From: Flavisolibacter longurius | GTDB lineage: Bacteria; Bacteroidota; Bacteroidia; Chitinophagales; Chitinophagaceae | Length of the DNA stretch: 64,000 nucleotides | Assembly: GCA_013327885.1 (NCBI GenBank) | Contig: JABUMY010000005.1 | Span: forward strand, 248,001-312,000 | Direction: 5' to 3' | In this document: piece after piece, positions 61 to 60,305 of the stretch | How positions within the stretch are numbered: the stretch's first letter is position 1 | Layout of the letters: the number at the start of each line of letters is the position of its first letter | Notes under the pieces: model-generated | Told to the model about the DNA's origin: nothing | Database searches by the model: none | What the model saw: the letters and a program-made list of their open reading frames with translations, nothing else | Made by a program: the position numbers and the translations under genes

Positions 61-92
61 CGGCTAGCTATTAGCTACTGGCCACTAGCCGG
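61..92. repeat. Heptad-word repeat downstream of rpsM
   Basis: Degenerate 7-bp tandem words of the CTATTAG/CTACTGG type fill this short stretch. The same word family recurs at 132-166, 585-657 and 781-866 and in the rRNA spacers. It lies in the gap after rpsM. Positions 1-60 could not be assigned to a gene: no rpsK start is visible on the minus strand. Confidence 0.6.
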
Positions 93-131
93 ATTTCGAT
101 TCAGATGAAGATTTTCATCCTTCTCGTAAAC

Positions 132-166
132 AAGCCAGAAGCTAGCGGCTAATAGCTAGCAGCTAT
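132..166. repeat. Heptad-word repeat abutting the rpsM stop codon
   Basis: Words of the form nnGCTAn repeat every 7 bp (for example AAGCTAG, TAGCTAG, CAGCTAT). The block ends 3 bp before the rpsM stop codon at 170-172, so it would be transcribed as the immediate 3' flank of rpsM. Confidence 0.65.
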
Positions 167-169
167 TTC

Positions 170-550
170 TTATTTCTTCGGAGCCTTCTTCTTACCAGCA
201 ACCGTTTTACGCTTGCCCTTGCGGGTGCGGCTATTGGTTTTGGTACGCTGACCTCTCAGAGGCAAGCCTTTTCTGTGACGAAGTCCACGGTAGCAAGCGA
301 TATCCAGCAAGCGCTTGATATTCATTTGCACTTCAGAACGCAGGGCACCTTCCACTTTCAGTTCGTCAGTGATGGTACCACGAATGGCTGCCAGTTCTTC
401 ATCATTCCACTCATGCACTTTTTTGCTTCTGTCAATATTGTGCGTGTCAAGAATGTAACGGGCAGTAGCGGGTCCAATACCGAAGATATAGGTCAGACCG
501 ATTTCGCCTCTTTTGTTTTTTGGTAAGTCAACGCCGGCAATACGAGCCAT
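170..550 (-). CDS. rpsM: 30S ribosomal protein S13
   Basis: Small-subunit protein S13, which binds 16S rRNA in the head and contacts the P-site tRNA and the intersubunit bridges. The 126-residue product has the normal family length. It starts [10 protein letters not shown], carries the S13 signature around residues 88-103 ([16 protein letters not shown]), and ends in a lysine/arginine-rich tail. It is the last visible gene of a minus-strand operon infA-rpmJ-rpsM, the usual bacterial order at the spc/alpha junction. The next expected gene, rpsK, is not visible in the 169 bp before the window edge, because that gap is largely heptad repeats. Confidence 0.98.
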
Positions 551-584
551 AGTTCTATTTTAGGTTTTAAAGTCTTTTAAATTC

Positions 585-657
585 AAGCAGCTAGCTGTTA
601 GCCTCAAGCTGCTAGCCGGAAAAAGCTAACGGCTAATAGCTAATGGCTAATAGCTTT
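585..657. repeat. Heptad-word repeat between rpmJ and rpsM
   Basis: About ten degenerate 7-bp words (CTGCTAG, GGCTAAT, AGCTAAT and variants) occupy most of the 107-bp gap between rpmJ and rpsM. The block touches the rpmJ stop codon at 658-660. Because both genes should be co-transcribed, the repeat lies inside a ribosomal-protein mRNA. Confidence 0.7.
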
Positions 658-774
658 CTATCCTTGTCTTTGCTTATAACGGGGGTTCTTTTTGTTGATC
701 ACGAAAAGCTTCCCTTTGCGGCGCACGATCTTGCAATCGGCGCTTCTTTTTTTGATCGATGCTCTAACTTTCAT
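658..774 (-). CDS. rpmJ: 50S ribosomal protein L36 (zinc-free form)
   Basis: Large-subunit protein L36, 38 residues, read on the minus strand from the ATG at 774 (starts [10 protein letters not shown], ends YKQRQG). The canonical zinc form uses three cysteines and one histidine; here only Cys14 remains, with Ser at 11, Asn at 27 and Tyr near 32, so this is the C-minus form that does not bind zinc. It sits between infA and rpsM, the conserved position. It is flanked on both sides by heptad repeats. Confidence 0.95.
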
Positions 775-780
775 AGTTAA

Positions 781-866
781 TTTAAGCTTTTAGCTATTGG
801 CGTTGAGCCTTTAGCAAATGAAACAATTTTTATTTCCAACCGCTAACAGCAAACCGCTAATAGCTT
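781..866. repeat. Heptad-word repeat between infA and rpmJ
   Basis: The 90-bp gap contains two runs of 7-bp words (TTAGCTA, TTGGCGT; and CCGCTAA, TAGCTTA). The second run reaches the infA stop codon at 865-867. It is the same word family as at 132-166 and 585-657. Confidence 0.6.
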
Positions 867-1083
867 ATTTGTACCTGAAAATGATACGTCCCCTCGACAG
901 GTCGTACGGACTCATCTCCACACCTACCTTGTCACCGGGCAAAATCCGTATGTAGTGCATCCGCATCTTTCCTGAGATCGTCGCCAGGATTTCGTGTCCA
1001 TTTTCGAGCTTTACCCTGAACATAGCGTTGGATAATGCTTCGATGATCGTTCCGTCCTGTTTAATTAATGGCTGTTTTGACAT
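865..1083 (-). CDS. infA: Translation initiation factor IF-1
   Basis: IF-1, which binds the 30S A site during initiation. The product is 72 residues, the standard length, starting [11 protein letters not shown] and containing the single S1/OB fold ([18 protein letters not shown], then [18 protein letters not shown]). A longer in-frame reading extends upstream to 1266 but adds 61 unrelated residues, so the ATG at 1083 was chosen. A Bacteroidota -7 element lies just upstream at 1100-1107. It is the first gene of the visible operon with rpmJ and rpsM. Confidence 0.97.
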
Positions 1084-1790: not shown

Positions 1791-1938
1791 GTCAATTGGC
1801 AAGCGACAATATGCGATTAGCAAAATTGGATGATCACGTTTCTGCGGAATTGGTACCTATTATGGTCTTACAAATTTGTTTCACGCTTCCCTTGGCCTTT
1901 GACAAGAACCAACATACGCTTACCGCGACTGCATTTCG

Positions 1939-1975
1939 CGTTGCCCATTGCTTATTGCCCATTGCCCATTGGGCT
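1939..1975. repeat. Heptad-word repeat (ATTGCCC word)
   Basis: A near-perfect run of 7-bp words, CATTGCC/CATTGCT/TATTGCC, ending 24 bp before the stop codon of the lipoprotein gene. A related word (CAATTGG) is at 1793-1799. The rest of 1791-1998 shows nothing recognisable. Confidence 0.7.
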
Positions 1976-1998
1976 TTTGACTACCGGCCAATAACAGG

Positions 1999-2740: not shown

Positions 2741-2790
2741 TGAACTGCACAAACTGCCTACTGCTTACGGCCGACTGCCAACTGCTTTCT
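2741..2790. repeat. Heptad-word repeat at the hmgA stop codon
   Basis: Seven-bp words GCCTACT, GCTTACG, GCCGACT, GCCAACT run up to and into the stop codon of the downstream-facing gene (2790-2792). The same GCNNACT word recurs at 8438-8505. Confidence 0.7.
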
Positions 2791-3947
2791 CACTCCGCCC
2801 AGCTCATCACATAGCCATCGTTCTCGATTGCCAGGGCCTGCTTTGTCAACATCAGCGGGTGAAAGGTATCCACCATCACCGCCAGTTCCTTTGTTTCCTT
2901 GGCGCCAATGCTTTTTTCCACCGAACCGGGGTGCGGCCCGTGCGGGATGCCGGCCGGGTGCAGGGTGATCATACCACGGGTAACATTCTTGCGACTCATA
3001 AAATCGCCGTCAACATAATAGAGCAGTTCGTCGCTGTCGATATTGCTGTGATTGTAAGGCGCAGGGATGGCTTGTGGATGGTAATCGAACAGGCGGGGTA
3101 CAAAGGAGCAAACCACGAAATTGTGTGCTTCAAAGGTTTGATGAACCGGCGGCGGCTGGTGCACCCGCCCGGTGATCGGCTCAAAATCGTGAATGGAAAA
3201 TGCAAAAGGATAGCAACAGCCGTCCCAGCCAACCACGTCAAAAGGATGACCGGCATAATGAATATTATACAGGATGCCGCGCTTTTTGGTCTTTACCATA
3301 AAGTCGCCCTTTTCGGTAAACGTTTCCAGGTCTTGCGGCGCACGAATATCCCGTTCGCAAAACGGCGAATGCTCGAGCAACTGCCCGTATTTGCTCAGGT
3401 AGCGCTTGGGAAAACGGATAGGGCTGAAACTTTCGACAATAAAAAGGCGGTTGTTCTCTGTAGTGAAATGGATCTGGTAGATGGTTCCCCGCGGAATGAC
3501 CAGGTAATCGCCATAGGCGAAAGGCAGGCTGCCGTACACCGTTTTCAGCACTCCGCTGCCTTCGTGTACAAAAAGCATCTCATCGGCATCGGCGTTTTTG
3601 TAAAAATATTCAGTCAGGCTTTGCTGTGATGCTGCGAGTACAATGTGCACGTCGCCGTTGACCAGCACCGGCACACGGCTTTGCAGGAAATCTTTTTCCG
3701 GCTTGATCTTAAAGCCATCAAAGCTGCGGTGACTGAGCATTTTTTCTTCAGCCACCTCGGGTGCTACGTTTACCGGCTTTTCTGTTTTAATGATCTCCGT
3801 TGGCGGGTGAACGTGGTAGAGCAGGGAATAATCGTTGGAGAAACCTTCGGTAGAAAAAAGTTGCTCGGAATACAATCCGCCATCGGGCTTGCGAAACTGC
3901 GTATGGCGCTTGTGTGGTATTTGTCCCAGTGTATGATAATATGGCAT
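2790..3947 (-). CDS. hmgA: Homogentisate 1,2-dioxygenase family protein
   Basis: Non-heme iron dioxygenase expected to open the ring of homogentisate to maleylacetoacetate in tyrosine/phenylalanine breakdown. The 385-residue product has the double-cupin layout of the family. The likely iron ligands are His300 (YNHSNIDSDE), a Glu about seven residues later, and His336 in HPAGIPHGPHP. Other conserved family stretches are VIPRGTIYQI (about 150-159) and VVGWDGCCYPFAFSIHDFEP (238-257). No fumarylacetoacetase or 4-hydroxyphenylpyruvate dioxygenase is next to it, so the pathway genes must lie elsewhere. The start ATG at 3947 gives the normal family length. Confidence 0.88.
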   Translation of the reverse strand: MPYYHTLGQIPHKRHTQFRKPDGGLYSEQLFSTEGFSNDYSLLYHVHPPTEIIKTEKPVNVAPEVAEEKMLSHRSFDGFKIKPEKDFLQSRVPVLVNGDVHIVLAASQQSLTEYFYKNADADEMLFVHEGSGVLKTVYGSLPFAYGDYLVIPRGTIYQIHFTTENNRLFIVESFSPIRFPKRYLSKYGQLLEHSPFCERDIRAPQDLETFTEKGDFMVKTKKRGILYNIHYAGHPFDVVGWDGCCYPFAFSIHDFEPITGRVHQPPPVHQTFEAHNFVVCSFVPRLFDYHPQAIPAPYNHSNIDSDELLYYVDGDFMSRKNVTRGMITLHPAGIPHGPHPGSVEKSIGAKETKELAVMVDTFHPLMLTKQALAIENDGYVMSWAE

Positions 3948-3958
3948 AGGAGGAATGT

Positions 3959-3996
3959 GATAGTCTGATAATACGATAATTTGATAATTAGAGAAT
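3959..3996. repeat. Octad-word repeat upstream of hmgA
   Basis: Degenerate 8-bp words (GTCTGATA, ATACGATA, ATTTGATA) lie directly 5' of the dioxygenase start. The rest of the gap to 4261 holds only a small hairpin near 4138-4160 and nothing else recognisable. Confidence 0.5.
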
Positions 3997-4261: not shown

Positions 4262-4792
4262 ATGAAACGGATTGGATTGATCTCAGACACACATGGTTTT
4301 TTGGACGAAGCGGTTTTCCGGCATTTTAAAGACTGCCACGAAATATGGCATGCCGGTGATTTTGGTACGGTTGCCATTGCCGAGCAACTGAAAGAAAAAA
4401 CAGGCCTGCCGCTGCGAGGAGTGTATGGTAATATTGACGGCACCGATGTGCGAAGCGTTTACCCAAAAACGTTAGTGTGGAACTGCGAGGACGTGACGGT
4501 GTACATGACCCATATCGGCGGTTACCCGGGGCGCTATGCGCCGGGCATTAAACAAGAACTGCAGAACAGCGGTGCACGGCTTTTTATCTGCGGCCACTCG
4601 CACATCTTAAAGGTCATTTACGATGAAAAGATCGGCTGCCTGCACATGAACCCCGGTGCTGCCGGCAACCAGGGCTGGCACAAAGTGCGAACGCTTATCC
4701 GTTTTACTATTGATGGTGCCAACATCAGGGATGCCGAGGTGATTGAATTGGGGATGAGAGGAAGCCCCCTGTCCCCCGGTGGGGGGACTTAG
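4262..4792 (+). CDS. YfcE/MJ0936-type metallophosphoesterase
   Basis: Calcineurin-like phosphodiesterase of 176 residues. All metal-binding motifs are visible: D9-T-H11, G-D33, G-N57, H84 and the final G-H112-S-H114. These coordinate two metal ions for hydrolysis of phosphodiesters; the natural substrate of this family is uncertain. The ATG at 4262 (MKRIGLISDTHG) was preferred to an upstream in-frame start at 4220, since the fold begins right there. The last nine codons and the stop come from a REP-like repeat (4764-4795), so the C terminus GSPLSPGGGT is probably not ancestral. Confidence 0.9.
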   Translation: MKRIGLISDTHGFLDEAVFRHFKDCHEIWHAGDFGTVAIAEQLKEKTGLPLRGVYGNIDGTDVRSVYPKTLVWNCEDVTVYMTHIGGYPGRYAPGIKQELQNSGARLFICGHSHILKVIYDEKIGCLHMNPGAAGNQGWHKVRTLIRFTIDGANIRDAEVIELGMRGSPLSPGGGT

Positions 4793-4795
4793 GTC
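4764..4795 (+). repeat. REP-like palindromic element, left copy
   Basis: A 32-bp G/C-rich element with the core CCCCCTGTCCCCCGGTGGGG. It matches the element at 5015-5046 in inverted orientation at 31 of 32 positions. It supplies the stop codon of the phosphoesterase gene. Confidence 0.8.
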
Positions 4796-4933
4796 GATTA
4801 TTCATTTGTACAGGCAGCTTTTCACCCAGTACAATGTGTTTCTATTTCCCTTTGTTGAATAGGATTCATGGACGTAGAAGTGTGCGACGCAACAGAAGTT
4901 CAATAGTAGCAACCCTGTTCAGTACATAAAAAA

Positions 4934-5014: not shown

Positions 5015-5046
5015 GACCTAAGTTCCCCCACCGGGGGACAGGGGGC
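5015..5046 (-). repeat. REP-like palindromic element, right copy
   Basis: Inverted partner of 4764-4795 with one mismatch in 32 bp. It ends 9 bp before the stop codon of the membrane protein gene. Together the pair brackets a 283-bp segment. Confidence 0.8.
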
Positions 5047-5055
5047 CGGCCGGCA

Positions 5056-5642: not shown

Positions 5643-5677
5643 CTTTGCCAATTGCTGATTTCTCATTGCTCTTTGGA
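5643..5677. repeat. Heptad-word repeat at the 3' end of the propeller gene
   Basis: Short run of words CCAATTG, CTGATTT, CTCATTG, CTCTTTG. It ends 5 bp from the stop codon of the 5683-6777 gene, as at other loci. Confidence 0.5.
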
Positions 5678-5682: not shown

Positions 5683-6777
5683 TCACTCTTCCCAATCAGC
5701 AATAAAAATATTGGTATCCCTTGTGCCGCCGTTGTTGCGGTTACTGGAAAAAATGATCTTTTTGCCGTTAGGACTAAACATCGGGAAGGCATCAAAGCCC
5801 TTGTCGTGGCTGATCTTTTCCATGCCGCTGCCATCGGCTTTCATCACATACATGTTAAACGGAAAGCCACGCTTGTATTCGTGGTTGCTGCAAAAAATAA
5901 AGTTGCCATCGGGCTTGAAGTTGGGTGCCCAGTTGGCCTGTCCCAACGATGTTACCTGCTGCACATTGCTGCCATCCGCATTGGCCACAAACACTTCCAT
6001 TTGCGTGGGAGCTACCAGACCTTCTGCTAACAGCTCCTTGTATTCTTTTATCTCCGCCTCGGTCTTGGGGCGGCTGGCACGCCAGATCAGTTTTTTCCCG
6101 TCGGGACTAAACCAGGCACCACCATCATAACCCAATTCACGTGTAACCTGCGTCGTGACACCGCTGGCCAGGTCCATGACATAAAGGTCAAGATCGCCGT
6201 TGCGCACCGAGCTAAAGACCATCTTTTTCCCGTCAGGTGAAAGCGTAGCTTCAGCATCATAGCCCGGTGTGTCGGTCAGTTTTTTTACAATCTTTCCTGT
6301 CAGATCGGCCATGTAAATATCGTAGCTGCTGTACAGGGGCCAGATGTAGCGGTTGCCGTATTTGCTGCGGTCGGGCACCGGCGGGCAGGCTTCACTGCCT
6401 TCGTGGGTGGAAGCATAAACAATATGCTTGTTGTCCTTTGTAAAAAAAGCGCAGGTGGTGCGGCCTTTGCCCGTGCTCACCAGTTGGTAGGTAAACTTCT
6501 CTCCTTTTGCCGGCACCTTGCCGTAGTAGATCTGGTCGCAGGGAATGCCGTCTTTTACCGATGTGCGCTGAAAGACGATCGCTTTTTCATCATAACTCCA
6601 GTAGGCTTCGGCATTGTCGCCGCCAAAAGTGAGCTGCTGCAGGTTGCGAAAATATTTTTCTTCGGGATAGCGCAAGGTATCAGCCGCCGGGTTGCCTTGC
6701 GCAGAGGCCACACCTCCCACAACGCTTGAACAAAACGATAGCACAGCAAAAGCAACGTAGAAATATTTTTTAACCAT
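5683..6777 (-). CDS. Secreted TolB-like beta-propeller protein (PD40 repeats)
   Basis: Exported protein of 364 residues with an N-terminal signal peptide (MVKKYFYVAFAVLSFCSSVV). The rest is a chain of WD40-like PD40 blades, each showing a form of SPDGKKMVFSS: ATLSPDGKKMVFSS, AWFSPDGKKLIWRA, PNFKPDGNFIFCS and PMFSPNGKKIIFSS. Such propellers occur in TolB and in the N-terminal domain of S9 peptidases; here no peptidase domain follows, so it is a binding or scaffold protein of unknown partner. Its start is divergent from the TPR lipoprotein at 6884. Confidence 0.85.
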   Translation of the reverse strand: MVKKYFYVAFAVLSFCSSVVGGVASAQGNPAADTLRYPEEKYFRNLQQLTFGGDNAEAYWSYDEKAIVFQRTSVKDGIPCDQIYYGKVPAKGEKFTYQLVSTGKGRTTCAFFTKDNKHIVYASTHEGSEACPPVPDRSKYGNRYIWPLYSSYDIYMADLTGKIVKKLTDTPGYDAEATLSPDGKKMVFSSVRNGDLDLYVMDLASGVTTQVTRELGYDGGAWFSPDGKKLIWRASRPKTEAEIKEYKELLAEGLVAPTQMEVFVANADGSNVQQVTSLGQANWAPNFKPDGNFIFCSNHEYKRGFPFNMYVMKADGSGMEKISHDKGFDAFPMFSPNGKKIIFSSNRNNGGTRDTNIFIADWEE

Positions 6778-7652: not shown

Positions 7653-7757
7653 AAGCAATTGGCAATAAACAATGGGCAAAAGAAAATAATGGGCTTGGGG
7701 TTAATGCTGCTGTCACACAATTGCAAATTGTCTCTTGCCAATTGCCAATTGATTTAT
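7653..7757. repeat. Inverted heptad-word repeat between the TPR gene and rpe
   Basis: The left half uses CAATTGG-type words (CAATAAA, CAATGGG) and the right half uses the reverse complement CCAATTG (CAAATTG, CCAATTG twice). The two arms can pair over the roughly 30 bp between them. The left arm starts 4 bp after the stop codon of the TPR gene. Confidence 0.75.
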
Positions 7758-7782: not shown

Positions 7783-8436
7783 ATGCCCCTGTTAGCCCCC
7801 TCATTACTCGCCGCCGATTTTTTACACCTGGAAGATGAATGCAAACTGGTAAACAACAGCGAAGCTGACTGGCTGCATTTTGATGTGATGGATGGCCGCT
7901 TTGTGCCCAACATTTCGTTTGGACTGCCGGTGCTGAAAGCGGTTCGCAAAGCCTGTACAAAGTTTTGCGATGTGCACCTGATGATCGAAGAGCCTTCAAC
8001 ATACGCGGAGGAATTCAGGGACGCCGGTGCCGATATGCTGACCGTTCATTACGAAGCTTGCCGCCACCTGCACCGCAACATTCAACAGATCAAATCTCTG
8101 GGCATGCAGGCCGGCGTGGCCATCAATCCCCACACGCCGGTTGCTGTTTTGGAAGATATTTTAGCTGATGTGGACATGGTGCTGGTGATGAGTGTAAACC
8201 CTGGTTTTGGCGGGCAAAAATTTATCGAACACAGCTACGAAAAAATCCGGACGCTTCGCCGCATGATCACCGAAAAAGGACTGTCTGTAAAAATAGAAGT
8301 CGATGGTGGCGTAACACTTGAAAACGCCGGTGCACTGGTAAAGGCCGGTGTGGATGTGCTAGTTGCCGGCAATACCGTTTTTTCTTCGTCAAATCCGGTT
8401 GAAACCATAAAAAAGCTAAAAGCAGCCGGTTTATAG
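7783..8436 (+). CDS. rpe: Ribulose-phosphate 3-epimerase
   Basis: Interconverts ribulose 5-phosphate and xylulose 5-phosphate in the pentose phosphate pathway, in the cytoplasm. The 217-residue TIM barrel shows the family motifs in order: LAPSLLAADF at the N terminus, HFDVMDGRFVPNISFG (about 33-48), VHLMIEEP, VMSVNPGFGGQKF (about 132-144) and EVDGGV followed by AGNTVF. The ATG at 7783 was chosen over an upstream TTG at 7759, because family proteins begin at this point. It is bounded by heptad repeats on both sides. Confidence 0.96.
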   Translation: MPLLAPSLLAADFLHLEDECKLVNNSEADWLHFDVMDGRFVPNISFGLPVLKAVRKACTKFCDVHLMIEEPSTYAEEFRDAGADMLTVHYEACRHLHRNIQQIKSLGMQAGVAINPHTPVAVLEDILADVDMVLVMSVNPGFGGQKFIEHSYEKIRTLRRMITEKGLSVKIEVDGGVTLENAGALVKAGVDVLVAGNTVFSSSNPVETIKKLKAAGL

Positions 8437-8437
8437 A

Positions 8438-8505
8438 AGTAAGCAGTTGGCAGTAGGCAATATGCAGTCAATTCATTACTGCCAACTGCTTACTGCCTAC
8501 TTTTT
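8438..8505. repeat. Inverted heptad-word repeat acting as a likely terminator
   Basis: The left arm has AGTnnGC words and the right arm GCnnACT words. Positions 8438-8455 and 8477-8494 form a perfect 18-bp inverted repeat with a 21-bp loop, followed by a T-rich stretch. It starts 2 bp after the rpe stop codon and overlaps the end of the convergent gene at 8508. It probably terminates one or both genes. Confidence 0.75.
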
Positions 8506-8507
8506 AC

Positions 8508-8723
8508 TTATTGCTTATACCCGCCTGCATTCGTTGCATCTTCTTTGTCTGTATTCCGGTTTGGATTGTTTTGCCGCACACTGTCCGAAACTTCCTGGTC
8601 GTTGTCGGTGTATTCTTCTGTGAGCTCTTTATCCCGGTCCATGTCTTTGTCAAATTTTGACGGAATACCGGTTCCCTGGCTACTTTTGTTTGTTCCCGAA
8701 GGTTGTCCTTTGTCAGTACGCAT
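8508..8723 (-). CDS. Small hydrophilic hypothetical protein
   Basis: A 71-residue, highly charged and probably disordered protein (MRTDKGQPSGTNKSSQGTG, then DKDMDRDKELTEEYTDNDQE). The ATG at 8723 was preferred to one at 8780 because the upstream part is unlike the rest in composition. There is no signal, membrane segment or known motif. It may be a stress-type hydrophilic protein, but this is only an impression from its composition. Its last two codons lie inside the neighbouring heptad repeat. Confidence 0.55.
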   Translation of the reverse strand: MRTDKGQPSGTNKSSQGTGIPSKFDKDMDRDKELTEEYTDNDQEVSDSVRQNNPNRNTDKEDATNAGGYKQ

Positions 8724-11334: not shown

Positions 11335-11395
11335 AGCTATGAGCTATGAGCTGCGAGCGGAATAATCAATAATTATTAATTACTGATTATTCACC
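11335..11395. repeat. Heptad-word repeat between convergent genes
   Basis: Two word sets follow each other: GAAGCTA/TGAGCTA, then AATAATC/AATAATT/ACTGATT, all at period 7. The block begins 5 bp after the receptor stop codon and overlaps the last codons of the hemerythrin gene (stop at 11380-11382). Confidence 0.65.
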
Positions 11396-16917: not shown

Positions 16918-16992
16918 TCCGCTCAACCCCAAACTAAACCTTAACCTAATCCTCAACCTCCTCCCAACGCTCCCAACCTTAACAACCTTCTG
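16918..16992. repeat. Six-bp-word repeat upstream of mnmA
   Basis: Words of about 6 bp (AAACCT, TAACCT, AATCCT, CAACCT) run across the gap between the Dabb gene and mnmA. The reverse complement of this word set occurs 40 kb away, directly after the phoH stop codon (57433-57484). Confidence 0.65.
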
Positions 16993-18129: not shown

Positions 18130-18232
18130 TTGGTTAATATATTGAGAGGTTGATAAGGAAAAGAGTCTTTTCGCCGAAAACCTCTATCCTTACCAACCTG
18201 TCAACCTTTCAACTTGTAAACTTTTTCGCTAC
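18124..18232. repeat. Inverted heptad-word repeat after mnmA
   Basis: The left arm (AGGTTGATAAGGA, near 18146-18158) is nearly the reverse complement of the right arm (TCCTTACCAACCT, near 18186-18198), 12 of 13. Further CAACCTG/TCAACCT-type 7-bp words follow on the right. The block begins inside the mnmA stop region. Confidence 0.6.
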
Positions 18233-37277: not shown

Positions 37278-37296
37278 TTGAAGCACTGAAGCTTCG

Positions 37297-37340
37297 AGCC
37301 GTGAGCTATTAGCTGTAAGCTGCTAGCTGCTGGCTGTTTG
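37297..37340. repeat. Heptad-word repeat in the tRNA-Ala/23S spacer, left operon
   Basis: Seven-bp AGCT-based words (GAGCTAT, TAGCTGT, TAGCTGC). It is the same word family as around rpsM. The copy is at 43323-43366. Confidence 0.65.
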
Positions 37341-37427
37341 CAGATAATGAGGTTGTGAACCCCCAGACCAACACTATATGGTGTCGTCATCATCTAAGTT
37401 TGAAAGAACTGTTTTCTTGTTTGCTGT

Positions 37428-37466
37428 TTTTTGCTAGTAGCTTGAAGCTAATAGCCAGCAGCTTTT
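37428..37466. repeat. Heptad-word repeat next to tRNA-Ala, left operon
   Basis: Words CTAGTAG, CTTGAAG, CTAATAG, CCAGCAG at period 7, ending 7 bp from the tRNA. Copy at 43454-43492. Confidence 0.6.
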
Positions 37467-37552: not shown

Positions 37553-37622
37553 AAAGCTTCAAGCTTTGTGCTTCGAGCCTCGAGCAGCTTGCTCGCAGCT
37601 AGCAGCTAATAGCTAGCAGCTT
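37553..37622. repeat. Heptad-word repeat between tRNA-Ile and tRNA-Ala, left operon
   Basis: About ten words (AAGCTTC, GAGCCTC, CAGCTAG, TAGCTAG) fill the spacer between the two tRNAs. Copy at 43579-43648. Confidence 0.65.
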
Positions 37623-37814: not shown

Positions 37815-39345
<1,531 letters not shown>

Positions 39346-39922: not shown

Positions 39923-40008
39923 TAAAAGTTGGAGGAAAAGTAGAGAAAGAAGAAGGGAAAGAAAACATTTTAAAGAACTGGTAGAGTAACCTCTCTACTT
40001 ATAATAGA

Positions 40009-40038
40009 ACAGCCCCAGTTTGCACTGGGGCTGTTTTT
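40009..40038. terminator. Terminator of the right rRNA operon
   Basis: Hairpin ACAGCCCCAGT with ACTGGGGCTGT, then TTTTT. It lies in the 72-bp unique spacer (39962-40033) between the two rRNA units and separates them transcriptionally. Confidence 0.85.
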
Positions 40039-40046
40039 AATAGATA

Positions 40047-40156
<110 letters not shown>

Positions 40157-40200
40157 GAAGGTGATGATCCGTTGTTCGGCAGGCAAAGTATGACAGTGGT

Positions 40201-40229
40201 GTCATGCTGAGCGCAGTCGAAGCATCGAA
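40201..40229. repeat. Bacteroidota-type short repeat in the 23S-5S spacer, right operon
   Basis: Copy of 34175-34203. Confidence 0.5.
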
Positions 40230-40290
40230 GCACAATAAGTTAACATATTGGAATGAAAAGTTGCAGAATAAGAGTCGATTAAATAAAATT

Positions 40291-43166
<2,876 letters not shown>

Positions 43167-43293
43167 AAATTTTGAAATTGTATTTGTTACCCGACCACCA
43201 ACTTCAGACCACCAATTACTTGGCGATGCAAAAAATTAATGTGATCGATAAATAGACTCTTCGTCTAACAACTTTTCAATTGATTCCAATATG

Positions 43294-43303
43294 TCAAAGA
43301 ACT
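43294..43303 (-). promoter_or_regulatory. boxA antitermination site before 23S, right operon
   Basis: Copy of 37268-37277. Confidence 0.55.
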
Positions 43304-43322
43304 TTGAAGCACTGAAGCTTCG

Positions 43323-43366
43323 AGCCGTGAGCTATTAGCTGTAAGCTGCTAGCTGCTGGCTGTTTG
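43323..43366. repeat. Heptad-word repeat in the tRNA-Ala/23S spacer, right operon
   Basis: Copy of 37297-37340. Degenerate repeats would be expected to drift quickly, so identity between copies points to recent duplication or conversion. Confidence 0.65.
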
Positions 43367-43453
43367 CAGATAATGAGGTTGTGAACCCCCAGACCAACAC
43401 TATATGGTGTCGTCATCATCTAAGTTTGAAAGAACTGTTTTCTTGTTTGCTGT

Positions 43454-43492
43454 TTTTTGCTAGTAGCTTGAAGCTAATAGCCAGCAGCTTTT
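43454..43492. repeat. Heptad-word repeat next to tRNA-Ala, right operon
   Basis: Copy of 37428-37466. Confidence 0.6.
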
Positions 43493-43498
43493 CTAAAG

Positions 43499-43572
43499 TG
43501 GAGGATAACGGATTCGAACCGTTGACCCCCTGCGTGCAAGGCAGGTGCTCTAGCCAGCTGAGCTAATCCCCC
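43499..43572 (-). tRNA. tRNA-Ala (anticodon TGC), right operon
   Basis: Copy of the left-operon tRNA-Ala; no encoded CCA. Confidence 0.95.
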
Positions 43573-43578
43573 TGGAGA

Positions 43579-43648
43579 AAAGCTTCAAGCTTTGTGCTTC
43601 GAGCCTCGAGCAGCTTGCTCGCAGCTAGCAGCTAATAGCTAGCAGCTT
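43579..43648. repeat. Heptad-word repeat between tRNA-Ile and tRNA-Ala, right operon
   Basis: Copy of 37553-37622. Confidence 0.65.
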
Positions 43649-43652
43649 GGTT

Positions 43653-43730
43653 TGGTAGACCCGTCCAGATTTGAACTGGAGACCCCTACATTATCAGTGT
43701 AGTGCTCTAACCAGGCTGAGCTACGGATCT
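43653..43730 (-). tRNA. tRNA-Ile (anticodon GAT), right operon
   Basis: Copy of the left-operon tRNA-Ile; CCA encoded. Confidence 0.95.
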
Positions 43731-43840
43731 ATTAGGATTGTAGCCCGCATCAAAGTCGGGTTACTTACAGAAAAAACAAAGAACGTAATTTCAATGAAAG
43801 TAGTTGGAAACAACAGCTTAGGTAAGTCGCTAAGCTCTAA

Positions 43841-45371
<1,531 letters not shown>

Positions 45372-45500
45372 AAATGAGTTTTGATACTGACTATTTAAAT
45401 TCTCAAAAAGAAAAATTAAACGAGTCAATTTCGAATTGTTTTCGCTTGACTTACCTAATGTTTGTAACTATAAAAGTTACGTGCTGTTGCTTCCAAACTT

Positions 45501-45510
45501 TCAAAGAACT
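45501..45510 (-). promoter_or_regulatory. boxA antitermination site before 16S, right operon
   Basis: Copy of 39475-39484. Confidence 0.5.
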
Positions 45511-45651
45511 TTCAACTACATCTCCCCTGGCATTACCCAGGAAAAAAGAGCCGATTTGCAAGTGATCAGATTGTGAATCTCAGACCGAACGTCTCACCTT
45601 TTTTACTGCTAGAGAACTGATTTACTGTTGTGTGTTTTTCGATTGGGAGTG

Positions 45652-45682
45652 CAAATGTACAACCTTTTTTATTCTCACCAAA
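45652..45682 (-). promoter_or_regulatory. rRNA promoter P1, right operon
   Basis: Copy of P1: TTTG-N19-TACATTTG on the minus strand. Confidence 0.75.
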
Positions 45683-45788
45683 ATTATTTTTCTGATTATC
45701 ACCATTTTAACAAGTGCCAGATCCATAATCTTCATCCTCCCGTAAACCCTGTAAAGAACTGCTTAACCCTCTTTTTTCAAGCGGAGGG

Positions 45789-45821
45789 CAAAGATACATC
45801 CCCTTAACCATTCCCTCCAAA
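45789..45821 (-). promoter_or_regulatory. rRNA promoter P2, right operon
   Basis: Copy of P2: TTTG-N21-TATCTTTG on the minus strand. Confidence 0.75.
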
Positions 45822-45915
45822 TCTTTTCCAAACTTTCCTCACAAAAATCTGTGAAGAACATCCACCGCTTTCTAACCTCCCTTCCATCCCGTATCCACCC
45901 CTCAAAAAGCGAAAG

Positions 45916-45948
45916 CAAAGATACATAACTAACTCATTATCAACCAAA
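45916..45948 (-). promoter_or_regulatory. rRNA promoter P3, right operon
   Basis: Copy of P3: TTTG-N21-TATCTTTG on the minus strand. Confidence 0.75.
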
Positions 45949-46033
45949 TAAAAGTTGGAGGAAAAGTAGAGAAAGAAGAAGGGAAAGTGGCTGTGATTTA
46001 CAGTAATCATTTCCTTTTTTCGAAGAGCGGGTG

Positions 46034-46064
46034 CAAAGATAGGAAGGTTGCCATAACAACCAAA
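46034..46064 (-). promoter_or_regulatory. Extra rRNA promoter P4, right operon only
   Basis: On the minus strand: TTTG (46061-46064), 19-bp spacer, TATCTTTG (46034-46041). It lies outside the duplicated unit, between truA and the right rRNA operon. No equivalent is in the 72-bp spacer upstream of the left operon. Confidence 0.7.
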
Positions 46065-46107
46065 AACATTTCAGTTTTTGCTGCAAAAAAAACGTGAAAC
46101 GCAGTGC

Positions 46108-53704: not shown

Positions 53705-53726
53705 CGCTGAAATTAATTTTCAGTGT

Positions 53727-53826
53727 TACCGGGGTGCTTTTCTTCCACACAAAACAAATAAAAACAGAAGAAAGGCTGAGATCAAACCCGCAAAACCTGA
53801 TCAGGGTAATGCCTGCGCAGGGAGCT
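53727..53826 (+). promoter_or_regulatory. TPP (thi-box) riboswitch
   Basis: The conserved THI elements are all present in order: ACCGGGGTGC near the 5' side, GGCTGAGATCA, then ACCCG..AACCTGATC and GGGTAATGCCTGCGCAGGGA near the 3' side. The element binds thiamine pyrophosphate and turns off the downstream gene. Its 3' end is separated from the start codon by about 125 bp of heptad repeat and AT-rich sequence, so the expression platform is not evident. Confidence 0.93.
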
Positions 53827-53827
53827 A

Positions 53828-53912
53828 AAACAGTTTACTGTTCACTGTTTCCAGTTTACCGTTCGTTACTTCTCAACTGAAAACTGCAAACTTTAAACTG
53901 AAAACTTCTCCT
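53828..53912. repeat. Inverted heptad-word repeat between riboswitch and receptor
   Basis: The left half has CAGTTTA/CTGTTCA words; the right half has TAAACTG, AAAACTG and CAAACTT, the reverse complement. It begins directly after the riboswitch core and ends 41 bp before the start codon. It could pair with itself or with the riboswitch. Confidence 0.75.
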
Positions 53913-56400: not shown

Positions 56401-57432
56401 TTGAGAGAAACAATCATCAACCTTGAAACGGTTAATCCTATTGAGTTCTTTGGTGTTAATAATGGCAAACTGGATATTTTAAAGAAAAAATTTCCCCTTT
56501 TAAAAATCCTCTCCCGAGGCACACAATTAAAGCTGAGCGGTGCACCCGAGCAAGTGGATGGCGCCAAAGAAAAGATCGATCTCATTGTGCAATACCTCGA
56601 AAGAAACGGACACATGAGCGAAAATTATTACGAGCAGATTTTGGGTGGCGATGATGCCGAAACCGTTGACAACTTTGTGGAACGAAACCCGGCCGAGGTG
56701 CTGGTTTTTGGTCCCAATGGTAAAACGGTGAGGGCCCGTACGGCCAACCAAAAACGCCTGGTAACGGCAGCCGAAAAAAACGACATTGTTTTTGCCATCG
56801 GCCCGGCCGGTACGGGTAAAACCTACACGGCAGTTGCCATGGCGGTAAGAGCCCTGAAAAATAAAGGCGTGAAAAAGATCATTCTGACCCGTCCCGCGGT
56901 GGAAGCAGGTGAAAGCCTTGGCTTTTTGCCCGGTGACCTGAAGGAAAAGATCGATCCTTACCTGCGCCCCCTGTACGATGCGCTGGATGATATGATACCT
57001 GCCGATAAACTGGGTTATTACATGAGCACCCGCACCATTGAAATTGCACCCCTGGCCTACATGCGCGGCCGTACGCTGGATAACTGCTTTATTATCCTTG
57101 ACGAAGCGCAGAACGCCACCGACCTGCAATTGAAAATGTTTCTTACCAGGATTGGCGGCAATGCTAAAGCTATCATCACCGGCGACCTTACGCAGGTGGA
57201 TCTGCCCAAGAACCAGAAAAGCGGTTTGGCAAAAGCAAGCAAGATCCTGCGCAACATCGACGGCATTGGCTACATTGAGCTGGATGAAGAAGACGTGGTG
57301 CGTCACAAGCTGGTAAAAGCCATCCTGAAGGCCTATGACAAAGAGAACCAGCGTGAGATGGAGATCGAAGAGCAGGAGAAGAAAGAACGGAAGGAAAGAA
57401 GGGAGTATTTCCGTGACAGGGAGAGGGATTGA
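56401..57432 (+). CDS. phoH: PhoH-family ATPase
   Basis: Cytoplasmic P-loop ATPase of 343 residues, PhoH family, linked to RNA metabolism. Walker A is GPAGTGKTYTA (about 136-146), with TRPAVEAGESLGFLPGDLKE following, and Walker B is FIILDEAQNA (about 230-239). The N-terminal part (ETVNPIEFFGVNNGKLDILK) is a KH-like lead typical of the family, so the start must be the TTG at 56401: the next in-frame ATG lies some 70 codons inside. The stop codon is followed directly by a 6-bp-word repeat. Confidence 0.9.
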   Translation: MRETIINLETVNPIEFFGVNNGKLDILKKKFPLLKILSRGTQLKLSGAPEQVDGAKEKIDLIVQYLERNGHMSENYYEQILGGDDAETVDNFVERNPAEVLVFGPNGKTVRARTANQKRLVTAAEKNDIVFAIGPAGTGKTYTAVAMAVRALKNKGVKKIILTRPAVEAGESLGFLPGDLKEKIDPYLRPLYDALDDMIPADKLGYYMSTRTIEIAPLAYMRGRTLDNCFIILDEAQNATDLQLKMFLTRIGGNAKAIITGDLTQVDLPKNQKSGLAKASKILRNIDGIGYIELDEEDVVRHKLVKAILKAYDKENQREMEIEEQEKKERKERREYFRDRERD

Positions 57433-57484
57433 GGCTAGGATAAGGTTGAGGTTGAGGCTTAGATTTAGGTTAAGGTTTAGCAGA
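57433..57484. repeat. Six-bp-word repeat at the phoH stop codon
   Basis: Words GAGGCT, AGGTTG, AGGTTA, AGGTTT at period 6, starting at the first base after the stop codon. The set is the reverse complement of the one at 16918-16992. Confidence 0.65.
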
Positions 57485-57495
57485 AATGAATAGTG

Positions 57496-57523
57496 AAAGT
57501 GTCCTGGCAACGGGGCACTTTTT
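57496..57523 (+). terminator. Terminator of phoH
   Basis: Hairpin AAAGTGTCC with GGGGCACTTT and a T run, 60-90 bp after the stop codon. Confidence 0.6.
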
Positions 57524-57601
57524 CGTTACAGGAATTTACCGGCCATCCTTTACCCGCAATTGAATATCCAATCTCCTTTATCCAGTCTCACATTCTCCCA
57601 T

Positions 57602-58037: not shown

Positions 58038-58387
58038 ATTTTTTCTGGATCGCCCTTGGCGGTGCTGCAGGAAGCCTTTTGCGTTATGGCTGCAGCCGGT
58101 GGTTGAATGGTCCTGCCTTTCCTTATGGTACGCTGGCCGTCAACATTACCGGCAGCTTCCTGATCGGGCTTCTTTGGGCGGTTTTCAGCAGGCAAAGCGA
58201 TGAAACAGCCCGGCTGCTTTTGATCACCGGTTTCTGTGGCGGCTTTACCACCTTTTCGGCCTTTAGCCTCGAAGGTCTGCAAATGTTACAACAAGGCCGG
58301 TTTGCTCCGTTTTTTATTTACACCTTTGCAACAATAATTTTTGGCCTTTTGGCCACCTATACTGGTTTTAAATTAATGCATACATGA
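58034..58387 (+). CDS. crcB: Fluoride ion channel/exporter
   Basis: Fluc-type fluoride channel of 117 residues and four membrane helices, which lets fluoride leave the cell. The family signature GFCGGFTTFSAFS is at 66-78, with ALGGAAGSLLRY at the N terminus and GTLAVNITGSFLIGLL (32-47). Its start overlaps the lipoprotein stop, and its stop overlaps the ppa start (ATGA at 58384-58387). The combination with pyrophosphatase suggests a shared response to fluoride. Confidence 0.95.
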   Translation: MNFFWIALGGAAGSLLRYGCSRWLNGPAFPYGTLAVNITGSFLIGLLWAVFSRQSDETARLLLITGFCGGFTTFSAFSLEGLQMLQQGRFAPFFIYTFATIIFGLLATYTGFKLMHT

Positions 58388-58935
58388 AAGCAAGAGTAAC
58401 GCAAGTATTACACCCCTGGCATGGCGCTTCACATGGCGCAGACGCACCTGAGAAAGTAATGGGACTGATCGAAATTTCACAAGGCTCCCGTACAAAATAC
58501 GAGATCGACAAAGAAACCGGCCTGCTGGTGCTGGACCGGGTGATCTATTCCTCGTTTCACTACCCCGTGAACTATGGCTTTATTCCGCAGACACTGGGCT
58601 GGGATGGCGATCCGCTGGATATTCTTGTTTTCTGCTCACAAAGCATTCAGCCGCTTTGCCTGGTAGAGGCAAGAGTGATTGGCAACATGCAGATGGTTGA
58701 CAGCGGCGAACACGATGACAAGATCATTGCCGTTGCCACCAACGATCCTTCGGTAAACCACATTCATTCCATTGAAGCCTTACCGCCGCACTTTATCAGT
58801 GAACTGCGCAATTATTTCGAGCAATACAAAGTGCTTGAGAACAAGCAGGTGTACATCGAAAACTTCCAGGACAAAGAAGAGGCGTACAAGATCATCAACG
58901 AAGCCATCGAGCATTACAAAACAACGTTTGCATAA
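58384..58935 (+). CDS. ppa: Inorganic pyrophosphatase (family I)
   Basis: Cytoplasmic enzyme that hydrolyses pyrophosphate made by biosynthesis. The 183-residue product has the signature DGDPLDI (metal-binding Asp74, Asp76, Asp79), RTKYEIDKETGLLVLDRVIY and SSFHYPVNYGFIPQT. Family I enzymes are strongly inhibited by fluoride, which makes its coupling to crcB notable. The ATG at 58384 keeps the HPWHGASHG lead usual in this group. Confidence 0.96.
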   Translation: MKARVTQVLHPWHGASHGADAPEKVMGLIEISQGSRTKYEIDKETGLLVLDRVIYSSFHYPVNYGFIPQTLGWDGDPLDILVFCSQSIQPLCLVEARVIGNMQMVDSGEHDDKIIAVATNDPSVNHIHSIEALPPHFISELRNYFEQYKVLENKQVYIENFQDKEEAYKIINEAIEHYKTTFA

Positions 58936-58938
58936 GGT

Positions 58939-59370
58939 ATGCAATCCAAACGATCCCCCATGACCCTACAAATGATTCTTATCCTGGTAACGATCGGTTT
59001 ATTGGCCGGCATGCTAAGCGGCATGGTTGGCGTAGGTGGTGGGATCATTGTTGTACCGGCGCTGGTGTTTTTCCTGGGCTTTACGCAAAAGCAGGCCCAG
59101 GGAACTTCACTGGCTTTGTTATCGTTGCCGGTGGTAATACTTGCAGCACTTAATTATTACAACCAGGGATTGGTGGAGATTCGCACCGTGCTGGTGATGG
59201 CCGTTGCCTTTTTGATTGGCGGCTTTTTGGGTAGTAAGATTGCTCTTTCGGTACCGGAGGAATCGTTGAAACGCTTTTTTGCCGTTGTTCTTTTTTATAC
59301 CGGGTTTAAAATGCTGGGCTTTGATGTGATTGCCTTGCTTATCCAGGGAGTTAAAAAAATCTTCGGATAG
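58939..59370 (+). CDS. TauE/SafE-family membrane protein (half-size)
   Basis: Membrane protein of 143 residues with about four helices (ILVTIGLLAGMLSGMVGVGG, GIIVVPALVFFLGF, LLSLPVVILAALNYY, VAFLIGGFLGSKIALSV). The G-M-V-G-V-G-G-G motif is typical of TauE/SafE anion exporters, which in full length have about 250 residues, so this half-size form probably works as a dimer. It starts 3 bp after ppa. The start may also be an ATG at 58960. The end overlaps the convergent NlpC/P60 gene by 20 bp. Confidence 0.82.
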   Translation: MQSKRSPMTLQMILILVTIGLLAGMLSGMVGVGGGIIVVPALVFFLGFTQKQAQGTSLALLSLPVVILAALNYYNQGLVEIRTVLVMAVAFLIGGFLGSKIALSVPEESLKRFFAVVLFYTGFKMLGFDVIALLIQGVKKIFG

Positions 59371-60130
59371 CGCACAACTGGTGTGTTCGTTTTCCTGTTT
59401 CGTGGTTTGTGATGCCCTCTTTATCTATTGGGTCAATGCGAACCTTTCCCGCCGCATGGGCAATTTTCTCGTTGCTGAGCAAGATACCAACATGCACGAC
59501 CCTGCCCGCTTCATTTTGAAAAAAGGCGAGGTCGCCCATTCTTGCTTTTTCCAGGCTTTCTACAGCACTACCTTGGCCGGCCTGCAGGTAAGCATCCCGC
59601 AATAATTTAACGCCGAAAAGTTTGAACACTTGTTGTGCAAAGCCACTGCAGTCGATTCCGAAAACAGATTTTCCTCCCCAGAGATAAGGTGTTTCCAGGT
59701 ACATCCAAACCAGCTTATTCAAATTCTCGGCTGTAAAAGGGTGGGCTTGAACATTCCAAACGGCAGTCTCCAGCACATTAAAAATGATTTGGCGGTTGCC
59801 AAACTGCAGGGGCTCGGCAGGATGCGAGGGTTTATAGATTGGTGTGCCCATAGGCATCATCCGGCATAAGCCATCAATAAACACCTCCTCTGAAAAAACA
59901 CCAATAAAATCATCGGTGCTGTGAACCTGCGATTCGGTTACAGTCGTTAGCTGGCTGGCCTGCACCCAGCCTTCGTAACCGTCATACGCACATTTTACCC
60001 AAACAAAATCATCCTTCTTCTCTCCCATGTCTGCATATTCGCCAAACAGGATCTGGCTTACCATCTCACTACGATGCGATGCTTCCTTGCGCATGGGCAC
60101 TACCGGTAATAAACAAATTGCAGGCTGCAT
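59351..60130 (-). CDS. NlpC/P60 peptidoglycan hydrolase with SH3-like domain
   Basis: C40-family cysteine peptidase of 259 residues. An SH3b-like domain (about 15-65: RKEASHRSEMVSQILFGEYA, WVKCAYDGYEGWVQ) precedes the catalytic domain, with Cys161 (GIDCSGFAQ), His213 (GRVVHVGI) and a third polar residue near His225. It should cut the D-Glu-diamino acid bond of peptidoglycan peptides. No clear signal peptide is seen, which is unusual for a wall enzyme. The ATG at 60130 was chosen; one at 60169 adds 13 residues. Confidence 0.87.
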   Translation of the reverse strand: MQPAICLLPVVPMRKEASHRSEMVSQILFGEYADMGEKKDDFVWVKCAYDGYEGWVQASQLTTVTESQVHSTDDFIGVFSEEVFIDGLCRMMPMGTPIYKPSHPAEPLQFGNRQIIFNVLETAVWNVQAHPFTAENLNKLVWMYLETPYLWGGKSVFGIDCSGFAQQVFKLFGVKLLRDAYLQAGQGSAVESLEKARMGDLAFFQNEAGRVVHVGILLSNEKIAHAAGKVRIDPIDKEGITNHETGKRTHQLCAIRRFF

Positions 60131-60185
60131 GAATTGTTTTCGATTTTGATTATGCAAATTTGCAGGCATTGCATCTTATTAGCAA

Positions 60186-60305
60186 ACGTGAAACGCAAGG
60201 AGTTTACAAGTTCACAGTTTTACAAGTTCACAAGTTGACAAACATGCAACAAAAGAAAACAGACCTAAGAGCAGGACGAGTACCAGGTTTCACGTTTCAC
60301 GTTTG
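60186..60305. repeat. Inverted heptad-word repeat between NlpC/P60 and sigma factor genes
   Basis: The left part has AACGTGA/AACGCAA and CACAAGT-type words, the right part TTTCACG (twice) and TTTGATG. The 12-bp AAACGTGAAACG on the left and CGTTTCACGTTT on the right are exact reverse complements, about 100 bp apart. Confidence 0.65.

What the first reader, a model, noticed from the sequence alone, without database searches (positions are those of the whole stretch)
61..60305. A class of intergenic elements built from degenerate 7-bp words, each locus with its own word
At about 17 places the intergenic DNA is a chain of near-repeated words, mostly at 7-bp period (6 bp at 16918 and 57433, 8 bp at 3959). 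Within a locus 3-5 of the 7 positions stay constant and the rest vary; between loci the word changes (AGCTAnn, ATTGCCn, GCnnACT, TAAACTG, TTTCACG and others). They are not ordinary microsatellites, because the variation is spread over all units. They occur around housekeeping genes, so they are unlikely to be cargo of one mobile element. I know no named element of this kind.
Basis: seen in the sequence. Interest (0 to 1): 0.85.

Follow-up and report, generated by a model that had tools for sequence, protein, structure and literature searches.

The report
Hairpins built of shifting seven-letter words
Between the genes of this bacterium sit many short DNA hairpins whose two arms are both strings of one seven-letter word, the word differing from place to place and between related species; this kind of repeat is known, but the paired form was not described in the papers that my searches listed.

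Summary
The signal is real. Lag-7 similarity islands: 19 in the window against 0.25 per shuffle; 124 non-coding in 1.13 Mb of this genome against 1. In 50 two-arm elements arm complementarity is 16.5, unchanged (16.45) when units are permuted, against 8.5 for shuffled arms: the arms share a word, not a unit order. At orthologous gaps (ribosomal-protein operon, TPP-riboswitch leader) relatives often keep a hairpin with another word; selected arms pair within a genome (14.2), hardly between genomes (8.1). In tandem gaps 54 of 84 elements start within 15 nt of the upstream stop codon (random 31 ± 3). U-tracts are rare and G·U does not exceed A·C. Best reading: 7-nt slippage plus hairpin-templated copying at DNA level, tolerated, perhaps used like REP hairpins. 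Degenerate heptanucleotide repeats are known (cyanobacterial repeats, the Nostoc trnL P6b hairpin, TAACTGA, GGGAATC): a new variant of a known kind, not a nameless class.

The parts
61..169 (-). Two-arm heptamer hairpin (AGCTAnn), directly behind the rpsM stop, rpsM-rpsK gap
   Evidence: islands 65-90 and 132-178; fold; inverted partner p=0.02
578..657 (-). Self-complementary heptamer array (AGCTAAT / AGCTGTT), directly behind the rpmJ stop
   Evidence: island 586-655, lag-7 score 17, lag-14 score 26; self-complementary p=0.02
781..868 (-). Two-arm heptamer hairpin between infA and rpmJ, directly behind the infA stop
   Evidence: islands 781-815 and 838-868 at score 10, below the cutoff; fold
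1931..1982 (.). Heptamer array TTGCCCA, 16 nt from the stop of the gene at 1999-2691
   Evidence: score 19
2753..2785 (.). Heptamer array ACTGCCn, 4 nt from the stop of an HgmA-like gene; no inverted partner found
   Evidence: partner p=0.88; Pfam PF20510 for 2790-3947
3958..3996 (.). 8-bp-period array (GATAATnn)
   Evidence: lag-8 score 17
5645..5675 (.). Heptamer array, 7 nt from the stop of the gene at 5683-6777; no island in the G006 ortholog
7653..7751 (+). Two-arm heptamer hairpin (CAATnnG / CnnATTG) between a TPR gene and the ribulose-phosphate epimerase gene
   Evidence: (p=0.02); the G006 ortholog has the same core word with more units
8435..8518 (+). Two-arm heptamer hairpin (GCAGTnG / CnACTGC) at the epimerase stop
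   Evidence: islands 8435-8466 and 8478-8518; p=0.02; kept in G006
11335..11389 (.). Heptamer array GAGCTAT followed by an AT-rich inverted repeat, between convergent genes; no island in G006
16924..16960 (.). 6-bp-period array (AACCTn)
   Evidence: lag-6 score 13
18138..18225 (+). Hairpin with an 8-bp-period right arm (CAACCTnT)
   Evidence: lag-8 score 14; fold
37296..37462 (-). Two heptamer arrays forming arms in the spacer between tRNA-Ala and 23S rRNA, operon copy 1
37554..37621 (-). Self-complementary heptamer array between tRNA-Ala and tRNA-Ile, copy 1
   Evidence: score 21; p=0.02
43322..43488 (-). Same arrays in the exactly repeated rRNA operon copy 2
   Evidence: exact run of 5954 bp at offset 6026
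43580..43647 (-). Same tRNA spacer array, copy 2
53720..53840 (+). TPP riboswitch aptamer (RF00059) upstream of a TonB-dependent receptor gene
   Evidence: 63.2 bits against a gathering score of 54.3; Pfam Plug
53826..53907 (+). Two-arm heptamer hairpin (AGTTTAC / AAACTGn) right behind the TPP aptamer
   Evidence: filled and compact orthologs
57425..57590 (.). 6-bp-period arm 57437-57480 (AGGTTn) pairing in the fold with a right arm near 57550-57590
60180..60311 (+). 8-bp array 60201-60241 and heptamer array 60284-60311 (TTTCACG) with an inverted partner near 60183-60195; no island in G006

Best explanation
These are heptamer-arm hairpins that arise and turn over at the DNA level. Shown: (1) period 7 dominates among old degenerate arrays and among fresh perfect ones; (2) the arms of a two-arm element carry the same word in inverted orientation but not the same unit order; (3) at conserved gaps in related species the word often differs while the two arms still match each other; (4) elements sit preferentially right behind stop codons. 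Inferred: when replication stalls at a small hairpin, the nascent strand slips by one unit of about 7 nt, or jumps to the opposite arm and copies a few units in any 7-shifted register. Slippage changes unit number, and arm-to-arm copying spreads new word variants to both arms, so each locus drifts to its own word with the arms in step. Mainly this is a mutational by-product, tolerated in untranslated DNA because the insert folds on itself (also within a riboswitch leader and rRNA spacers). Once transcribed, the hairpins may act as REP-like 3'-end or intercistronic structures.
For: Period: non-coding perfect arrays of at least 3 units are 7-mers in 9 of 14 (own), 2 of 2 (G003) and 13 of 17 (other loci); degenerate non-coding islands 11/124/44 at lags 6/7/8. 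Inverted pairing: 25 of 34 own non-coding islands have an inverted partner in the flanks or are self-complementary at p<0.05; G006 12 of 16, G009 3 of 6, G003 7 of 8, G013 3 of 5. No unit order: 50 two-arm elements, complementarity 16.52, unit-permuted 16.45, shuffled 8.47, 0 of 50 with p<=0.05. Arms change together: 14.2 within a genome, 8.1 across genomes at the same locus, shuffled baseline 7.5 (maximum 14); self best in 28 of 44. Strand-symmetric mismatches: G.U 108 against A.C 97 in 100 helices, p=0.49, while U-tailed helices from gaps without periodic islands give 54 against 23; difference p=0.010. Insert at one site: TPP leader, 8 genomes with 92-121 nt, 9 with a compact 24-60 nt; lag-7 excess in 7 of 8 against 0 of 9. 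Position: 54 of 84 (random 30.9 +/- 3.1), and in G003 16 of 23 (9.4 +/- 1.6), start within 15 nt of the upstream stop.
Against: Template switching is inferred; no intermediate or strain-level mutation was observed. Stop-codon attachment and lower density in divergent gaps (own 14 of 136 against 112 of 565, p=0.009) suggest some selection or a link to transcription; in G003 the gap-type difference is absent (p=0.63). Against all non-heptamer helices together the G.U/A.C ratio does not differ (292:210, p=0.21), and that control used a lower helix cutoff (8 against 11). 9 of 34 own islands have no detectable inverted partner. In one search only elements with self-complementarity of at least 10 or 11 entered, which raises the self score, and 8 of its 21 loci were picked because they showed arrays. 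Of the 8 filled TPP leaders, G004 and G013 do not fold better than shuffles (z -1.1, -0.8). TPP filled sites need 3 changes on the tree, at least 2 forced, so shared ancestry with losses is not excluded.
Confidence: 0.5

Rival explanations
1. RNA-level function: the hairpins are selected as REP-like 3'-end structures (ribosome stalling at the stop, protection from 3' exonucleases, partial attenuation); only foldability is selected, so the word is free to drift.
For: Start within 15 nt of the stop in 54 of 84, the distance at which E. coli REPs are said to stall ribosomes (PMC12306157, passages); by eye, ordinary GC-rich hairpins occupy the same rpsM-rpsK place in several relatives (printed rows); hairpin placed behind the TPP aptamer; lower density in divergent gaps of the own genome.
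Against: No excess of G.U over A.C; U-tracts rare (tails with at least 5 T of 10: 8 of 84 gaps), so not classical intrinsic terminators; does not explain period 7 or the absence of unit order; 42 of 84 gaps do not fold with z below -2.
Confidence: 0.27
2. Binding arrays: each array is a row of sites for an RNA- or DNA-binding protein, as proposed for TAACTGA repeats of Beggiatoaceae.
For: Constant positions with variable spacers recall a motif; MacGregor names S1, Csp and Csr families as candidates (PMC4679880, abstract and sections).
Against: Words differ between loci (overlap 0.115) and often between species at the same locus, which one binder could hardly follow; own elements lie behind stops, with no preference for downstream starts (28 against 30.5 expected).
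Confidence: 0.06
3. Ordinary microsatellites, old and decayed by point mutation, without any link between arms.
For: Perfect 7-mer arrays exist in the same genomes; heptamers are the most abundant class of longer repeat in most genomes (Mrazek 2007 as cited in PMC4679880).
Against: Inverted arms share the word far above shuffle (16.5 against 8.5), and arms still match where the word differs between species; plain decay gives neither.
Confidence: 0.12
4. A family of small mobile elements (MITE or REPIN type).
For: Filled and compact sites exist in the TPP leader; patchy distribution over genomes; some words recur at several loci.
Against: No shared consensus: distant own loci overlap by 0.115 and non-orthologous loci of different genomes by 0.107. 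Target duplications and transposases were not examined.
Confidence: 0.05

Closest known systems
[quoted passage not shown]
   Different: One locus inside an intron; here over a hundred arrays in the fifth of the genome sampled, many words, behind stop codons
Cyanobacterial heptanucleotide repeats (STRR) and long simple sequence repeats with 7-nt units
   Same: Unit 7, largely intergenic, three different heptanucleotides reported for Calothrix (as cited in PMC4692102; PMC4679880). That these are the STRRs is recalled.
   Different: Described in what I saw as direct tandem repeats; matched inverted arms not mentioned there
TAACTGA direct repeats of Beggiatoaceae, Cyanobacteria and five Bacteroidetes
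   Same: Heptamer arrays in intergenic DNA, also in ribosomal-protein operons, mixed with other heptamers in some Bacteroidetes (PMC4679880)
   Different: One fixed word, in the Beggiatoaceae mostly just before start codons; here locus-specific words, behind stops, often as inverted pairs
GGGAATC repeats of Xanthomonas and GGGGA(T/C)T of Nostoc
   Same: Heptamer arrays, heterogeneous units, some inverted; between the same genes in two Xanthomonas, yet with length and sequence variation (PMC4692102, passages)
   Different: One G-rich word, discussed as G-quadruplex former; here words are mixed
REP elements
   Same: Intergenic hairpins, some within 15 nt of a stop codon (PMC12306157, passages)
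   Different: REPs are characterised by a shared consensus; these share none and are periodic

Membership tests
Heptanucleotide simple sequence repeats (wide sense) | Head-to-tail units of 7 nt in excess of chance | tested here: met
Heptanucleotide simple sequence repeats (wide sense) | Mostly intergenic location | tested here: met
   124 of 152 lag-7 islands non-coding in the own sample
STRR in the strict sense (definition recalled) | A few fixed heptamer words shared by the loci | tested here: not met
   word overlap between distant loci 0.115
P6b-type degenerate heptanucleotide hairpin | Heptamer arrays that pair into a hairpin | tested here: met
   25 of 34 own islands paired or self-complementary
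P6b-type degenerate heptanucleotide hairpin | Located in the intron of tRNA-Leu | tested here: not met
   positions in intergenic gaps, rRNA spacers and a TPP leader
REP/BIME elements | Shared palindromic consensus over many loci | tested here: not met
REP/BIME elements | Hairpin close behind stop codons (true of part of E. coli REPs) | tested here: met
   54 of 84 within 15 nt, random 30.9 +/- 3.1
REP/BIME elements | Associated RAYT transposase (recalled) | not tested
   no search made
Intrinsic transcription terminators | Stem-loop followed by a U-tract | tested here: not met
   tails with at least 5 T of 10 in 8 of 84 gaps; convergent gaps read on one strand only
TAACTGA repeats | One word TAACTGA, mostly just upstream of start codons | tested here: not met
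   many words; no enrichment at downstream starts

The most novel reading that the evidence does not exclude
A self-templating class of DNA hairpin in which only the architecture (two arms, step of 7, behind a stop codon) is inherited. The sequence itself is continually rewritten and kept in step between the arms by arm-to-arm copying in sliding registers, so that loci and species come to carry private words; some of these hairpins have been taken into functional leaders such as the TPP riboswitch of this genus.
Probability: 0.3. Interest if true: 0.8.

Novelty: new variant of a known kind. Interest (0 to 1): 0.6.

Why it matters
The excess of heptamer repeats in bacteria is explained in print only by a conjecture about polymerase slippage (as cited in PMC4679880). 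Here a genus with many loci, filled and compact orthologous sites, and matched arms gives a system in which the 7-nt step, slippage and hairpin-mediated template switching can be tested directly. The elements sit in a ribosomal-protein operon, rRNA spacers and a riboswitch leader, so they may also affect mRNA ends. One contig of this draft (C12) starts inside AGTAGGC x18.

Tried and rejected
Contiguity of the constant core (is the word a 5-nt core plus 2 free letters?): only a weak effect, adjacent-column autocorrelation -0.096 against -0.165 permuted, 55% of 197 above the permutation mean; dropped. A first mirror test (32 elements, 0 of 32 significant) used different statistics for observed and permuted values and was biased; replaced. 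Gap-type counts used a crude gene caller that missed rpmJ and labelled the infA-rpmJ-rpsM gaps divergent; replaced. Classical terminators: rejected because U-tracts are rare. The exact pattern CAACTGCCAACTG gave no hit in the own genome. Rfam at gathering scores gave no family for the arrays, apart from the TPP aptamer edge that overlaps one. A Nostoc plasmid as positive control was not available. No pair closer than about 82% mean protein identity (G006) was examined, so 7-nt indels could not be followed between strains. Repair or polymerase genes were not compared with element richness.

Rows dropped: the second rRNA copy (window about 40000-46100) in most counts; gaps below 40-50 bp or above 300-1500 bp, by call; two-arm pairs with inverted score below 10 or not above the direct score; helices with score below 11 or 8; elements with self score below 10 or 11, and all but 21 of the 110 loci of the gap set. 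Of 26 TPP matches in the genus the 17 at this leader, one per genome, were used; one of 18 genomes had no match. On the tree, 14 of those 17 genomes are labelled.
Full report
1. The observation. I measured similarity at a fixed lag along the window (islands scored +1/-1, minimum score 11) against dinucleotide shuffles in 200-bp blocks. Lag 7 gives 19 islands, 20 shuffles 0.25 on average; lag 14 gives 13; lags 10, 11 and 13 give none. In 328 kb of the same contig there are 44 lag-7 islands, 36 of them intergenic, against 1.0. In 1.128 Mb of this 5.75 Mb genome there are 124 non-coding islands against 1; lag 8 gives 44 against 4 and lag 6 gives 11 against 5. Scaled up, that is roughly 600 lag-7 islands per genome (inference). 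50 kb of E. coli K-12 shows one against 0.4.

2. Spread. The family is inferred to be Chitinophagaceae: the named loci with the most similar S13 protein are Chitinophagaceae bacteria (90% identity). Same-genus stretches of G006, G009, G003 and G013 show the excess; G003 has 28 non-coding lag-7 islands in 482 kb against 1. Of 80 named loci around the S13 gene, mostly Chitinophagaceae and other Bacteroidota, 51 have at least one non-coding lag-7 island, 150 in all against 3.8 in shuffles. Over 395 genomes of the phylum the single pattern AGCTNNNAGCTNNNAGCT reaches 5 or more matches in 35 by my count of the table (own genome 53, highest 69). The backward control (TCGA words at the same spacing) reaches 5 in 17 genomes, the own one included with 17 matches, so other words at period 7 are enriched too. 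With 8-nt spacing the two patterns reach 5 in 2 and 2 genomes, none in the own. Richness is patchy even within one genus (g87: 13 to 39 matches in five genomes, 0 or 1 in three). This tests two words only, and overlapping matches in one array count repeatedly.

3. Anatomy. Many loci fold as stem-loops: one arm is a row of heptamers, the other a row of reverse-complement heptamers (18 regions, no control). Tested against shuffled flanks, 18 of 34 own non-coding islands have an inverted partner within 100 bp at p<0.05, 11 are self-complementary, 25 either; G006 12 of 16, G009 3 of 6, G003 7 of 8, G013 3 of 5. In 100 tandem-gap helices the median length is 25 bp and the median loop 20 nt. Arrays without a partner exist, for example TCCAAAC x10 (L058:15151) and L060:1313.

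4. The arms share a word, not an order. In 50 two-arm elements (own, G003, other loci; pairs with inverted score of at least 10 and above the direct score) ungapped complementarity is 16.52; with heptamer units permuted it is 16.45, with arms shuffled 8.47; 0 of 50 exceed permutation at p<=0.05. The two arms can therefore pair in several registers 7 nt apart. A recent plain inverted duplication, or base-pair-by-base-pair selection, would leave matched unit order.

5. Same place, other word. In the infA-rpmJ-rpsM-rpsK gaps (rpsM and infA by Pfam; rpmJ and rpsK named from recall) hairpins recur in related species with different words, read by eye: AGCTATT in the own genome, GAGCTTC in G006, AAGC-type in G009, AATCTGA in G003. 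Behind the TPP aptamer (RF00059) the same leader carries 92-121 nt in 8 genomes and is compact, 24-60 nt, in 9; lag-7 excess (p<0.005) in 7 of 8 against 0 of 9; fold z is -2.0 or lower in 6 of the 8, not in G004 and G013, and also in one compact leader, G002. On a tree of infA+rpsM+rpsK the filled state needs 3 changes, at least 2 forced by well-supported branches. Words at orthologous loci are still more alike than at other loci (5-mer overlap 0.23, n=69, against 0.11, n=1521; p=2e-10), so part of the word history is shared. Neighbouring gaps of the operon in one genome also share words (0.23, n=11), and own islands 120-5000 bp apart do so slightly (0.147 against 0.115, p=0.004). Arms match within a genome (14.2) but hardly across genomes (8.1; shuffled baseline 7.5, maximum 14); self best in 28 of 44, among elements selected for self-complementarity. 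Of 22 window gaps with a G006 ortholog 3 have an island in both, 3 pass the cutoff only in the own genome, none only in G006, 16 neither. One of those three is the TPP leader, where G006 scores 8 and does carry a hairpin; so 2 (at 5554 and 11330), plus 60170 at score 10, are without trace in G006.

6. Position. Elements here are gaps with islands at lags 6-8. In tandem gaps 54 of 84 own elements begin within 15 nt of the upstream stop; random placement in the same gaps gives 30.9 +/- 3.1, at most 41 in 200 trials; G003 16 of 23 against 9.4 +/- 1.6; no preference at the downstream start (28 against 30.5). Gaps with an element: tandem 84 of 456, convergent 28 of 109, divergent 14 of 136 (Fisher p=0.009); G003 shows no such difference (23 of 163, 3 of 38, 7 of 44; p=0.63). 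In 84 own tandem and convergent gaps of up to 300 bp (another set, of the same size by chance) U-rich tails follow the main stem in 8, and 42 fold with z below -2.

7. DNA or RNA? If RNA structure were selected, mismatches on the transcript strand should lean to G.U over A.C. In 100 helices the count is 108 to 97, p=0.49. In tandem gaps without periodic islands, U-tailed helices give 54 to 23 and differ from the heptamer helices at p=0.010; untailed ones give 238 to 187; all together 292 to 210, not different from the heptamer helices (p=0.21). This leans towards a DNA-level process without excluding RNA use.

8. Mechanism. Fresh perfect arrays are mostly 7-mers (9 of 14, 2 of 2, 13 of 17), so the step seems to belong to the mutational process. 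Mrazek and co-workers proposed that 7 nt reflects the stretch in contact with the polymerase (as cited in PMC4679880, and PMC4692102; the original was not read). I infer slippage plus hairpin-templated copying between arms. The stop-codon bias may come from tolerance or from a REP-like use: REPs within 15 nt of a stop are reported to stall ribosomes (PMC12306157, passages).

9. What is known. Degenerate heptanucleotides folding into a hairpin are described for the Nostoc trnL intron (PMC3488679, passages). TAACTGA repeats occur in Beggiatoaceae, Cyanobacteria and five Bacteroidetes (PMC4679880: abstract, introduction, sections 10 and 23, passages). GGGAATC arrays in Xanthomonas include inverted ones, and arrays between the same genes vary in length and sequence between two species (PMC4692102, passages). 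[quoted passage not shown] My ten searches of an open-access library listed no paper that by title or abstract treats inverted heptamer arms with locus-specific words in Bacteroidota; lists were capped at 10-20 rows and subscription papers are mostly not held. So: a new variant of a known kind.

Noticed in passing
window 1-60 (minus strand) and the rpsM-rpsK gap of L002-L016: A leader-like sequence (GGATnCC...GGTGCAGGAGGAGGGTTGATT) recurs before rpsK in many of the gaps printed; in L099 and L139 it seems, by eye, to lie between the arms of a heptamer hairpin. It may be a ribosomal-protein leader. Rfam gave no match in the window, where it is cut by the window edge.
   Followed up: partly
window 34008-46000: Two rRNA operons in direct tandem, an exact run of 5954 bp at an offset of 6026 bp; real duplication or assembly artefact is open.
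   Followed up: partly
L002, infA-rpmJ gap (G006): Another sequence, GTCATCCTGAGCGTGTCGAAGGA, sits inside one arm of the heptamer hairpin; it looks like a nested insertion.
   Followed up: no
window about 4761-4797 and 5015-5050: A C/G-rich inverted repeat (CCCCCTGTCCCCCGGTGGGGGGACTTAGGTC on the left) of about 30 bp flanks some 220 bp of mostly intergenic DNA; perhaps another small element.
   Followed up: no
L155 (G000 contig C12) 1-127: The contig begins in AGTAGGC x18: a long heptamer array stands at the end of the assembly.
   Followed up: no
L163:13797-13883: One array passes from the word GTTTACC/T to GTTTCTC/GTCTCAC along its length, as if one word were turning into another.
   Followed up: no
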